From positions 1 to 57,840 of the forward strand of contig NZ_JAIZVX010000006.1 in the NCBI RefSeq assembly GCF_021768455.1: a stretch of 57,840 bases of DNA, given 5' to 3'. A model generated the notes under the pieces. That model was not told the origin of the DNA, did no database searches, and saw only the letters and a program-made list of their open reading frames with translations. Position numbers and translations under genes: made by a program. The stretch comes from Aquabacterium sp. Its GTDB lineage: Bacteria; Pseudomonadota; Gammaproteobacteria; Burkholderiales; Burkholderiaceae_C. Positions 30,873 to 33,742 of the stretch are shown here, piece by piece. The first letter of the stretch is position 1. Each line of letters begins with the position of its first letter.

Positions 30873-31745
30873 ATGGGACAATCCCTGACAGCAGAAACCC
30901 GATCCAGCGCGGCTGGCACACTGGGCACCAGCGCGAAGACACACACCGTTCGAAAGCAAAAAAACGTGAACTCGGAGCAATCAGGCAAGGAAGCCGGCGC
31001 ATCTGCCGACAAAAGCGGGATCCAGGTGATCGCGCGTGCAGCCGCGGTGCTGCGGGCATTGAAAGACCACCCTCAGGGCTTGTCCTTGGGTGAGTTGGCC
31101 AAGTTGTTGGGGCTGGCCCGCTCGACCGTGCAGCGCATCGTGGAAGCGCTGGACCGGGAGAACCTGGTCATCGCGGCCTCACCCACGCGGGGTGTCCGGC
31201 TGGGCCCAGCTCTGTTGGCCTTGGCTGCGGCCACACGCTTCGAAGTGGCCGAGATCGCGCGCCCCATCCTTCAGGAAATCTCTCTGGAGTGCGGCGAGAC
31301 GGTCGACTTGTCCATCCTCGACGGCGACAAGCTGGTTTTCGTGGAGCAGATCGTGGGTGTGCACCGCCTGCGCGCCGAATCCGCCATCGGGGTGTCTTTC
31401 CCATTGCACTCCACCGCGCCAGGCAAGGCCATGCTGGCCCTGATGACCGACGAGGAGCGGGCCAACCTCAAACCCAAGCTCAAACTCACACGCATCACGC
31501 GGCATACCGTGTCATCGTGGCCCGTGCTGATGGCCGAGTTGGACAAGGCCAGGGAGACCGGCCTGAGCCATGACCTGGAAGAAAACTCGATGGGCATTTC
31601 TGCTGTGGCCACGGCCTTGCGCGTGTCCACCGGCGAGATGATTGCGATCTCCATTCCCGTGCCAACGCAGCGCTTTGATGGCATGCGCAAGCAGTTGGAG
31701 AAGACGCTGATGTTGAACTCTGCCCGCCTGCACGGCCTGTTGTGA
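30873..31745 (+). CDS. IclR-family transcriptional regulator
   Basis: Up to 290 residues. The winged helix-turn-helix is clear (GLSLGELAKLLGLARSTVQR, about 68-87), followed by the IclR effector domain with DLSILDGDKLVFVEQIVG, FPLHSTAPGKAMLA and the C-terminal GISAVATALR. The ATG at 30873 gives a 30-residue longer N-terminus than is usual; the GTG at 30966 (VNSEQSGKEAG) would give 259 residues, nearer the family norm. Neither start has a strong ribosome-binding site. It is divergent from the cyclase-BKACE gene set and likely regulates it through the palindrome in between. Confidence 0.9.
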   Translation: MGQSLTAETRSSAAGTLGTSAKTHTVRKQKNVNSEQSGKEAGASADKSGIQVIARAAAVLRALKDHPQGLSLGELAKLLGLARSTVQRIVEALDRENLVIAASPTRGVRLGPALLALAAATRFEVAEIARPILQEISLECGETVDLSILDGDKLVFVEQIVGVHRLRAESAIGVSFPLHSTAPGKAMLALMTDEERANLKPKLKLTRITRHTVSSWPVLMAELDKARETGLSHDLEENSMGISAVATALRVSTGEMIAISIPVPTQRFDGMRKQLEKTLMLNSARLHGLL

Positions 31746-31829
31746 GATCTCAGACCTCGTTGACAAGCCACACGGCGCTGGGGCCAGCCTCTCAGTGCCA
31801 CGACAAGTGAACCAGCCTGGGAATTGTGG
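31746..31829. other. Non-coding stretch after iclR
   Basis: No gene is supported here. A 10-bp palindrome TGAGATCTCA straddles the iclR stop (31743-31752). No clear U-rich terminator hairpin is visible for iclR. Confidence 0.4.
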
Positions 31830-32064
31830 AAGTGGGCTGCTGCCCAATGGTGACCACCTGCCCTCGAAACCCCTGTGCAGGGGCTACACAACACGAGGCG
31901 CCATCGCTTGCAACCAGCAAAGCTGTTTGGCAAACTAGCAACGCGTTCAACCGGGAGGTTGAACCCGCTGTCAGGACAACCTGCAGCACCGTCGGTAAGG
32001 CGCGATGCCCCGATGCCTGTACAGAGGCTTAGCCATCGCGGGGACTTTCCATATCGGAGTCCCC
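31830..32064 (+). ncRNA. Candidate structured RNA leader: consecutive hairpins ending on the HNH gene start
   Basis: At least six helices can be drawn in order: GGGC/GCCC (31834-31845); CCTCG (31862-31866) with CGAGG (31894-31898) enclosing CCCCTG/CAGGGG (31870-31883); GCTGTTT with AAAC-T-AGC (31922-31939); GTTCAACC-GGGA-GGTTGAAC (31945-31964, perfect, GNRA-type loop); GCTG-T-CAGG with CCTG-CAGC around ACAA (31967-31987); CGCGATG (32001-32007) with CATCGCG (32034-32040) enclosing GCCT/AGGC; and finally GGGGACT (32040-32046) with AGTCCCC (32058-32064), which holds the GGAG ribosome-binding site and ends at the ATG. The last two helices share base 32040 and may alternate. This density is unlike the rest of the window. 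Identity is unknown. Position next to an HNH gene recalls HEARO/omega RNAs, but the protein is not IscB-like. Confidence 0.4.
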
Positions 32065-32165
32065 ATGACCAGCCAAATCCAACGCTCAAGAAGAACTGCT
32101 TTCGATCGCCAATGCGGCAAGTGGTACTACTGCGGCCTGCGCATGTGGCTAGATGGTCCTGCTGG
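32065..32165 (+). pseudogene. N-terminal remnant of a small HNH-endonuclease-like protein, cut by an IS element
   Basis: About 34 codons remain, from the ATG at 32065. The remnant reads MTSQIQRSRRTAFDRQCGKW followed by YYCGLRMWLDGPAG. The AFDRQ-x4-YYCG-x2-MW pattern is the zinc-knuckle start of small HNH endonucleases of roughly 110-130 residues, in which a CxxC-type pair is common; here the expected first Cys is Trp (GKWYYCG), a possible inactivating change. The HNH core itself is absent because the IS3-family element begins at 32166-32171. No C-terminal half is found on the far side of the element. Recognition rests on a short stretch. Confidence 0.5.
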
Positions 32166-32244
32166 TGATCTGAGCTCAGAAAGTCGAGCCATCTGAAGCG
32201 ATAGTTTTCCGGCACATTGGCCCCAGCAGGGGCTAGCGGAGGAC

Positions 32245-32526
32245 ATGATGAAGAAGAGTCGGTTTTCGGTCGAGCAAATCGTCGCAGCGCTCAAGCAGGC
32301 GGAGATGGGAATGCCAGTGGCGGACTTATGCCGCAAGCTTGGGATCAGTGAGCCCACGTACTACCGCTGGAAGAAGCAATACGGCAGCCTGGAGCCCGAC
32401 CAGGCCCGCGAACTCAAGCAGCTACAGGAAGAGAACGCTCGGCTCAAGAGGCTGGTGGCCGATCTGAGTCTGGATAAGGCAATCTTGCAGGACGTAGCCG
32501 CAAAAAAATGGGGCGGCCCGCGCTGA
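32245..32526 (+). CDS. IS3-family transposase OrfA (element 1)
   Basis: A 93-residue DNA-binding protein. The helix-turn-helix is in SVEQIVAALKQAEMGMPVAD and CRKLGISEPTYYRWKKQYG, followed by a leucine-zipper helix (QEENARLKRLVADLSLDKAI). ATGs at 32245 and 32248 are both possible; GGAGG lies just upstream. A run of seven A at 32502-32508 lies in the overlap with orfB, as expected for a programmed -1 frameshift making the OrfAB transposase. Confidence 0.88.
   Translation: MMKKSRFSVEQIVAALKQAEMGMPVADLCRKLGISEPTYYRWKKQYGSLEPDQARELKQLQEENARLKRLVADLSLDKAILQDVAAKKWGGPR
32502..32508 (+). promoter_or_regulatory. A7 slippery site for programmed -1 frameshifting in element 1
   Basis: Seven consecutive A within GCAAAAAAATGG lie just after the OrfA leucine zipper. 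The OrfA frame before it and the OrfB frame after it differ by -1. This is the standard arrangement for IS3-family OrfAB expression. Confidence 0.6.
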
Positions 32527-33347
32527 GGAAGCAAGCTGTGGCCTATGTCATGGGCCACTACTGCATCAGTCAACGTCGGGCCTGCACGCTCATCAAACTG
32601 TCGCGCAGCACGCTGTACTACCAGCCTGTTCGCGACCCTAGGCCAGAACTGCGACTTCGCATGAAGGAGCTGGCACAAACCCGAATCCGCTACGGGTATC
32701 GGCGTCTTCATGTTTTGCTCAAACGCGAAGGCTGGCAACTGGGGCGCAAGCAGTGTTACCGCATCTACCGTGAGGAAGAGCTGCAACTGCGCTCCAAGCT
32801 GCCCAAGCGTCGCAAGATGGTCATACAACGTCGACAGCGCTTTGCAGCTACGAGACCCGGTGAGGTCTGGTCAATGGATTTCGTGGCCGATCAGTTCGGC
32901 AATGGGGGCAAGTTCAGAATTTTGACGGTGGTCGATGTCTTCAGTCGGCAAGCGCTGGCAGTCGACGCGGGCTTGAGACTCCGAGGTGAACATGTGGTTG
33001 AGACGCTCAACCGCTTGGTGCGATGGCATGGCGCACCCAAAGTTGTCTTCGCCGACAACGGCAGCGAGTTCACTGGCCGTCTGATGGACATGTGGGCCTA
33101 CCACCATGGGGTGCGATTGGACTTCAGCAGACCCGGCAAACCAACGGACAACAGCTTTGTAGATACCTTCAACGGCAGCCATCAGGGATGAGTGCCTGAA
33201 CGTGAACTGGTTTGCCTTGTTGGACGAGGCTCAACGGCTTTTAGAGGCTTGGCGAAGGGACTACAACGAGAGCCGACCTCACAGTGCTCTCGACTACCTG
33301 ACGCCCGCTGAATACGCCCGTAAGATCAAGGAGTTGGAGCCTGCCTA
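32508..33347 (+). pseudogene. IS3-family transposase OrfB (element 1), frameshifted
   Basis: The integrase core is recognisable: the first Asp in WSMDFVADQF, the second in FADNGSEF. At the position exactly 35 residues after the second Asp, where the DDE Glu should stand (normally E before TFNG or SFNG), the sequence has Asp (FVDTFNG). Five codons later one extra A at about 33181 shifts the frame, giving a stop at 33189-33191. The original frame resumes as RDECLNVNWF and continues to NESRPHSALDYLTPAEYARK and a stop at 33345-33347. Translated as it stands, the protein lacks its C-terminus, so this copy should not transpose on its own. Confidence 0.87.
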
Positions 33348-33457
33348 GTGGCTCCTTGAACAGCCCGGACTATCGGTACGGCTGGCTCGGCAAATGGGAT
33401 CGGATCAACCCTTGGGCCTCTCTCCAACTGATTGGAATGGCTGGAGGGGGCAGGTCA

Positions 33458-33702
33458 AGGGCACGATCCAGGGTGGCAAGCGCAGGCCGGGTCGTTTCCA
33501 GGAATCGTTGCCCCTCATCCGTCAGCGACAGGCTGCGCGTGGTCCGGTTCAGCAGCCGCACCCCGAGGTGCTCTTCCAACTGCAGCAAGGCCTGGCTCGC
33601 CGCCTGAGCCGTCACGCCTTGCGACAGCGCAGCCTTGCGGATACTGCCCAACTCGACGGCCCTCGCCAACGTGGCGATGGCCCTTAACTCATTGATGGCC
33701 AT
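33458..33702 (-). pseudogene. LysR-family regulator, 3' two-thirds lost at the IS junction
   Basis: About 82 codons remain: MAINELRAIATLARAVELGS, then IRKAALSQGVTAQAASQALLQ and LEEHLGVRLLNRTTRSLSLT, a complete winged helix-turn-helix, ending near ATLDRALDLP where element 1 begins. In the present sequence the frame runs 29 codons into the IS and stops at 33370. The effector-binding domain is gone and is not found on the other side of the element. It is divergent from the MFS gene across a 105-bp gap with a perfect LysR-type operator, so it was presumably the regulator of the operon to its right. Confidence 0.8.
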
Positions 33703-33742
33703 AACTATTTTCAAGAAGATGAAGGTGTTAATTTAAACATCT

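What the first reader, a model, noticed from the sequence alone, without database searches (positions are those of the whole stretch)
31830..32165. Hairpin-rich leader fused to a small HNH-endonuclease gene: possible RNA-plus-nuclease mobile unit
Seen: seven or more helices lie back to back in about 235 bp, including one perfect 8-bp stem with a GNRA-type loop (31945-31964) and a bulged 8-bp stem with an ACAA loop (31967-31987). A final 7-bp stem encloses the ribosome-binding site and ends exactly at the ATG of an HNH-like reading frame. No other stretch of this length in the window folds so densely. Known: HEARO/omega RNAs precede HNH-containing IscB genes. The protein start here (RRTAFDRQ, then YYCGLRMW) is not IscB but a much smaller HNH type. 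Inference: a structured RNA tied to a compact HNH gene, either translational control or a mobile element of a type I cannot name.
Basis: partly seen in the sequence, partly recalled or inferred. Interest (0 to 1): 0.75.

Follow-up and report, generated by a model that had tools for sequence, protein, structure and literature searches.

The report
Structured RNA leader of HNH gene
Upstream of a now-broken small DNA-cutting (HNH) gene lies a conserved, folded RNA leader, apparently undescribed, that hides the gene's ribosome-binding site, and the same RNA-plus-gene pair recurs in other bacteria and prophages.

Summary
The hairpins are real, but the conserved signal is the last ~122 nt (31943-32064), not the whole 235 bp. 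A covariance model of this leader finds the same RNA directly before small HNH genes in other Burkholderiales and in a few phage contigs. 27 of 34 pairs show changes on both sides (24 sequences, 0 of 500 shuffles). In the scan of 399 family genomes, 11 of 11 RNA matches abut an HNH start (the window's is truncated, one is frameshifted); 13 of 19 HNH places carry the leader. A sigma-70-like promoter ends 4-7 nt before the RNA in 24 of 24, so a 5' guide is unlikely. The ribosome-binding site is predicted paired in 24 of 24. Rfam has no match to it.

Best reading: a self-contained HNH gene whose translation is held off in cis by a new structured RNA, perhaps through autoregulation. Flanks differ between genomes, so mobility is likely, but no empty site was found. 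The window copy is dead: an insertion sequence truncates it at 32166, and a zinc cysteine is tryptophan. It is not a HEARO/omega RNA as far as tested.

The parts
31875..31942 (+). 5' part of the unit: left edge of homology to the nearest relatives, containing the promoter
   Evidence: homology to G007 and G061 starts at 31875
31908..31913 (+). -35 element TTGCAA
   Evidence: 17 nt before the -10; a -35 beginning TTG in 18 of 24 leaders (weight matrix recalled)
31931..31936 (+). -10 element CAAACT, ending 6 nt before the RNA model
   Evidence: nAnAnT in 24 of 24 leaders; probable transcription start about 31943 (inferred)
31943..32064 (+). structured 5' leader RNA (P1-P5)
   Evidence: covariance models R1/R2; no Rfam match
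31945..31964 (+). hairpin P1, loop GGGA; all 7 modelled pairs show changes on both sides
31967..31987 (+). hairpin P2, bulged, loop ACAA; all 7 modelled pairs show changes on both sides
31990..32015 (+). hairpin P3 (CGTCGG/CCGATG with an inner stem)
   Evidence: largely present in the 153-nt minimum-energy fold, absent from the 125-nt one
32016..32042 (+). stem P4' (CCTG 32016-32019 with CGGG 32039-32042) enclosing P4 (GGC/GCC)
   Evidence: 96.9% of P4' cells and 79.7% of P4 cells paired in 24 sequences
32040..32064 (+). hairpin P5 that hides the ribosome-binding site; its outer pairs compete with P4' for G32041-G32042
32056..32059 (+). Shine-Dalgarno GGAG, 5 nt before the ATG, predicted paired
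   Evidence: P unpaired 0.03
32065..32165 (+). remnant of the HNH gene (first 33 codons and part of the next); the frame runs on into the insertion sequence to a stop ending at 32196
   Evidence: 84% identity to the intact protein over its residues 1-37
32166..33407 (+). insertion sequence that truncates the HNH gene (transposase-like frames; IS3-type assignment from recall)
   Evidence: 84% identity to a copy in L121 over 1242 bp; the same left edge in two other genomes

Best explanation
The feature is the 5' part of a compact self-contained gene unit: a sigma-70-type promoter, a ~122-nt folded 5' leader RNA of a class not in Rfam, and a small single-domain HNH nuclease (111 aa in the nearest intact relative). 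SHOWN by comparison: the RNA structure is conserved by compensatory change, it sits directly before the HNH start, and the ribosome-binding site lies in its last hairpin. INFERRED: the leader works in cis as a translational gate. P1-P4 form a binding domain and P5 is the expression platform; the G's at 32041-32042 can pair either upstream (P4') or downstream (outer P5), so the gate can shift. GUESSED: the trigger is the HNH protein itself (autoregulation, about 0.4 within this explanation), because genome scans found the RNA only before HNH genes and a unit that changes hosts needs a signal it carries along. The unit has probably moved between sites and prophages. In this genome it is a relic, truncated by an insertion sequence.
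For: Covariation: 14 of 34 pairs in the MAFFT alignment of 9, 27 of 34 in 24 sequences with 0 of 500 shuffles and the slid controls far lower. Association: genus scan 6 of 42 genomes, one place each, all before HNH, the window's truncated; family scan 11 places in 10 of 399 genomes, all before HNH, one frameshifted (L085) and the window's truncated. R1, built without them, finds 5 of 80 viral loci at E < 0.02, each ending at the HNH start; R2 adds L200 (E 0.0004) and, weaker, L205 (E 0.057). Promoter ending 4-7 nt before the RNA in 24 of 24, L038 being the weakest. Ribosome-binding site predicted paired in 24 of 24, mean P(unpaired) 0.13 against 0.36 for the leader (site chosen by pattern). 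Alternative pairing possible in 24 of 24 at two positions. In L126 and L055 the fold predicts that the 3' strand of P3 pairs with the ribosome-binding region instead.
Against: No expression or binding data. The 24-row alignment is fitted to the model and its rows were chosen because they match; the structure tested on the MAFFT alignment was itself derived from those 9 sequences, and one of its five measures was reached by 52 of 500 shuffles. P3 of the window depends on the stretch folded. 6 of 19 HNH places in the family have no R1 match at E < 0.002 (with R2, L088 reaches E 0.003 and L091 only 0.43). 75 of the 80 kept viral relatives are not matched by R1 at E < 0.02. In a MAFFT alignment of gamma-type leaders only P3 came out. 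R2 found only the own genome among 399 of the order (8 candidates scored per genome, strict filters). One R1 match of similar score to the weakest accepted ones (L043, 22.7 bits, E 0.0022) and its counterpart in L044 lie about 1.5 kb past the HNH gene, overlapping the end of another frame; I take them as chance. P4' competes with only 2-3 pairs of P5, so the shift may be too small to open the site. Autoregulation itself is untested.
Confidence: 0.7

Rival explanations
1. The leader is processed from the mRNA and works in trans as the RNA partner of the HNH nuclease, a minimal ribonucleoprotein used for target choice or for spreading the unit.
For: Linkage of RNA and HNH in genome scans; the HNH domain has weak similarity to IscB and Cas9d HNH domains, far below their cut-offs; a structured RNA before an HNH gene is the HEARO layout; the unit occurs at several loci in one other genus.
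Against: The promoter abuts P1 in 24 of 24, leaving no room for a 5' guide (start not mapped). No stretch of the leader matches its own flanks better than those of others (8.7 against 8.6 nt in 19 loci). The last helix is built around the ribosome-binding site. Only HNH families were matched in 20 relatives.
Confidence: 0.12
2. The leader is a switch for a host signal (metabolite, ion, temperature, translation state) rather than for its own protein.
For: Binding-domain-plus-platform anatomy with exchangeable pairing; conserved letters at junctions.
Against: In the genome scans all matches precede one gene family, whereas metabolite riboswitches usually precede several (recalled).
Confidence: 0.3
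3. The structure acts at the DNA level (hairpins as a nuclease or recombination site), not as RNA.
For: The opposite strand folds equally well (z -4.09); G-U cells exceed A-C cells only 42 to 18, and 25 to 15 in the 15 rows outside the first alignment, in an RNA-fitted alignment.
Against: The structure begins at the promoter's probable start point and ends at the ATG, and it includes the ribosome-binding site.
Confidence: 0.05
4. Chance folding of GC-rich DNA upstream of a decayed gene.
For: The 243-nt region is not unusual for this window.
Against: Covariation and retrieval of relatives at the predicted place.
Confidence: 0.01

Closest known systems
Hairpin-controlled phage homing endonucleases (mobE HNH of phage Aeh1, T4 segB, I-TevI), PMC2988022 (search listings, passages and section 12 read)
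   Same: A stable RNA hairpin hides the ribosome-binding site of an endonuclease gene, HNH type in mobE.
   Different: There the inhibitory structure forms on transcripts from upstream promoters, and a late promoter next to the gene leaves it out (described for I-TevI, similar for the others). Here the nearest promoter precedes the whole leader, and further conserved helices (P1-P4) lie upstream of the hairpin. No sequence relation to mobE was tested.
HEARO / omega RNA with IscB, PMC9755519 (search listing and passages read)
   Same: Structured RNA linked to an HNH-bearing gene; weak HNH-domain similarity.
   Different: No Rfam match, no RuvC match, no room for the 5' spacer, 111 aa.
Gmet_0936 HNH nicking endonuclease, PDB 4h9d, PMC3765158 (search listing, abstract and outline read)
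   Same: Small Cys4 zinc HNH protein; best hit by sequence (E 0.0012) and by fold (E 0.002).
   Different: Weak similarity; whether a leader RNA precedes it was not checked.

Membership tests
HEARO / omega RNA-IscB | match to the Rfam model | tested here: not met
   no match in the window at gathering score, none in 31740-32250 up to E = 5; in 45 relative loci the Rfam matches (tRNA, CRISPR repeats, C4, isrK) lie elsewhere, none at a leader
HEARO / omega RNA-IscB | protein with RuvC and HNH domains | tested here: not met
   20 of 20 relatives match Pfam HNH; the only other family matched is HNH_5
HEARO / omega RNA-IscB | 5' spacer (guide) in the RNA | tested here: not met
   -10 box ends 4-7 nt before the RNA in 24 of 24; no flank match; start site not mapped
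Group I intron with HNH gene | match to an Rfam intron model | tested here: not met
T4-type hairpin control of homing endonucleases | ribosome-binding site inside a stable hairpin | tested here: met
   24 of 24; prediction only
T4-type hairpin control of homing endonucleases | hairpin absent from transcripts of the promoter next to the gene | tested here: not met
   the predicted promoter lies upstream of the whole leader
Free-standing homing endonuclease | HNH catalytic motif | tested here: met
   H44, N58 and H71 (L034 numbering) invariant in 20 relatives; the window copy lacks this part
Free-standing homing endonuclease | precise insertion with empty sites in relatives | tested here: inconclusive
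   different flanks but no clean empty site
Riboswitch | ligand-dependent change of structure | not testable with these tools
   only the competing pairings are seen

The most novel reading that the evidence does not exclude
The leader is not just a gate but the RNA subunit of its own HNH nuclease: a ~500-bp autonomous RNA-protein unit, smaller than any IscB system known to me, in which one RNA both folds with the nuclease and controls its translation.
Probability: 0.12. Interest if true: 0.9.

Novelty: new variant of a known kind. Interest (0 to 1): 0.62.

Why it matters
It adds an apparently undescribed structured RNA class, closely linked to a patchily spread HNH nuclease family of bacteria and prophages, and it gives a clear system for asking how selfish nucleases are kept silent. 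It also poses a testable question: does a bare HNH domain bind an RNA encoded right before it, a plausible step on the way to RNA-assisted nucleases?

Tried and rejected
HEARO/omega RNA, group I introns and other Rfam families: no match at the leader (window; chosen relatives). Guide idea: longest exact match of leader to own flanks 8.7 nt against 8.6 for others' flanks, 19 loci. Empty sites: the G061/G007 locus, the window's left side, the L009 locus, the L127 locus in G730's genus; none clean. Known defence families: only weak PADLOC matches for 3 proteins, best E 1.5e-4. Leader in PLSDB plasmids: no match; HNH relatives in 11 plasmid and 9 phage records, all below 60% identity. Strand test by G-U against A-C counts: weak and biased. 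Leader core in viral relatives: strict pattern in 11 of 67 distinct upstreams against 1.2% of control stretches, loose pattern 19 of 67 against 9.8% (67 of the 80 loci had a distinct 150-nt upstream); most lack this core. Literature: the searches listed no description of this RNA (capped listings and starts of abstracts); the 2017 paper on 224 candidate RNAs (known from recall) is not held, so absence from print is not established.

Names given from recall, without a call: glmS, Fic, LysR, IclR and IS3-type for neighbouring frames.

Full report
WHAT IS THERE. The reading frame is HNH-like but stops being so at 32165. Sequence found elsewhere in two genomes of the genus starts exactly at 32166, and alignment to one of these copies gives an insertion sequence at 32166-33407 (84% over 1242 bp). 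The window gene also has Trp at the position (residue 20) where all 20 aligned relatives have Cys (compare), the first of four cysteines that should bind zinc by analogy with Gmet_0936 (abstract). It is a dead copy. No other copy of the stretch was found in its genome, which is about 90% complete.

DENSITY CLAIM. The claim that no other stretch of the window folds so densely is not correct: 734 of 952 other 243-nt stretches fold at least as well, 221 of 952 after G+C correction. The 125-nt stretch 31943-32067 is more unusual (z -3.46, 0 of 200 shuffles; 27 of 1916 after G+C correction).

RELATIVES. A DNA search of 60 other genomes found the leader in two of the same genus, G007 and G001; a protein search added G061 with the same protein as G007. 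G007 and G061 encode an intact 111-aa HNH protein, G001 a 113-aa one, 55% identical. A scan of genome contigs returned 25 relatives; contig lengths identify G061 and G007 with Aquabacterium records (inference). Nine leaders aligned by MAFFT show compensatory changes: 14 of 34 pairs, 0 of 500 shuffles on four of five measures and 52 of 500 on the fifth. The model R1 then found 6 of 42 genomes in the genus, one place each, all before the HNH gene, and 11 places in 10 of 399 genomes of the family (two of these genomes are also in the genus scan). All 11 abut an HNH start; the one in G301 leads into a frameshifted gene and the window's own gene is truncated. In the other direction, of 19 HNH places at E <= 1e-12 in those 399 genomes, 13 carry the leader at E < 0.002 (and the same places under other locus numbers); with R2, L088 reaches E 0.003; L082, L084, L087 and L090 have none and L091 only a weak match. 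Among all loci searched, 25 R1 matches at E < 0.02 precede an HNH gene and one (L043, E 0.0022) does not; it overlaps the end of another frame. These loci were mostly fetched for their HNH gene, so the genome scans are the fairer test.

PHAGES. A scan of viral contigs gave 383 relatives of the HNH protein, of which 80 were kept. R1, built without them, matched 5 of the 80 at E < 0.02, each ending at the HNH start; R2 adds L200 and, weakly, L205. With the five, 24 leaders show 27 of 34 pairs with changes on both sides, 91.4% of cells paired, and 0 of 500 shuffles on all measures. That alignment is fitted to the model and its rows were chosen because they match, so the slid controls (29-39% paired) and matter more. 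Most of the other viral relatives lack the core. One group, of which 15 loci were aligned, has a different, very conserved leader, in which only 3 of 34 predicted pairs show double changes.

PROMOTER AND EXPRESSION. Transcription therefore probably starts at the first letters of P1. The ribosome-binding site, chosen by pattern, is predicted paired in 24 of 24. The G's of the CGGG strand pair upstream in P4' and could instead pair downstream in an extended P5; both options exist in 24 of 24 at two positions. In L126 and L055 a larger exchange is predicted, with z = -4.9 and -6.2.

PROTEIN. AlphaFold2 gives a confident model of the L034 protein (mean pLDDT 88.9). The nearest solved structures are GmeHNH (4h9d), McrA and Cas9/IscB HNH domains, none at Foldseek E <= 0.001. 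H44, N58 and H71 (L034 numbering) are invariant among 20 relatives.

MOBILITY. In pairwise comparison of nine loci the shared block runs from the promoter or leader into the HNH gene, while flanks differ (exceptions: L051 and L052 share a 3.4-kb region, and L040 and L056 share further blocks upstream). In one other genus similar units lie at several loci, some of which may be the same locus in different species. Distribution is patchy: HNH at E <= 1e-12 in 18 of 399 family genomes and at E <= 1e-15 in 2 of 369 class genomes; R2 in the own genome only among 399 of the order (reduced sensitivity). No clean empty site was found, so movement is inferred.

INTERPRETATION. The evidence for a conserved RNA leader linked to HNH genes is strong, for translational control in cis good but indirect, and for autoregulation a guess. 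A trans-acting RNA partner is not excluded but has no positive evidence beyond linkage. The nearest known kind is hairpin control of phage homing endonucleases (PMC2988022, section 12), from which it differs in its promoter lying upstream of the whole leader and in the further helices P1-P4.

Noticed in passing
window 32166-33407 and 33370-33714: The insertion sequence joins an HNH remnant to a truncated LysR-type frame (name from recall) without a visible target duplication, suggesting a deletion next to the element; its second frame breaks near 33191.
   Followed up: partly
window 32122-32124 (HNH codon 20): The window HNH copy has Trp in place of a cysteine that is invariant in 20 aligned relatives.
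   Followed up: yes
L132, L140, L150, L189, L141, L133 and others, ~150 nt before the HNH start: A second, very conserved leader type before the same HNH family in phage contigs, hosts probably alphaproteobacterial (a guess, no call); no Rfam match at it in the members scanned.
   Followed up: partly
L126 1365-1488, L055 2870-2982: Leaders in which the 3' strand of P3 is complementary to the ribosome-binding region, a switch-like layout.
   Followed up: partly
G730 genus, loci L125, L127, L128, L238-L246: Several HNH units per genome at different loci in one other genus of the class.
   Followed up: partly
L043 and L044, 4895-4997: Weak RNA-model matches about 1.5 kb past, not before, the HNH gene; they overlap the end of another frame and are probably chance.
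   Followed up: partly
L046 2053-2741: A run of CRISPR-DR4 repeats a short way upstream of an HNH leader.
   Followed up: no
L004 1850-1935 (G061; also G007): The intact unit lies just downstream of a glmS-like gene (name from recall), beside a short sequence that recurs in G032.
   Followed up: no
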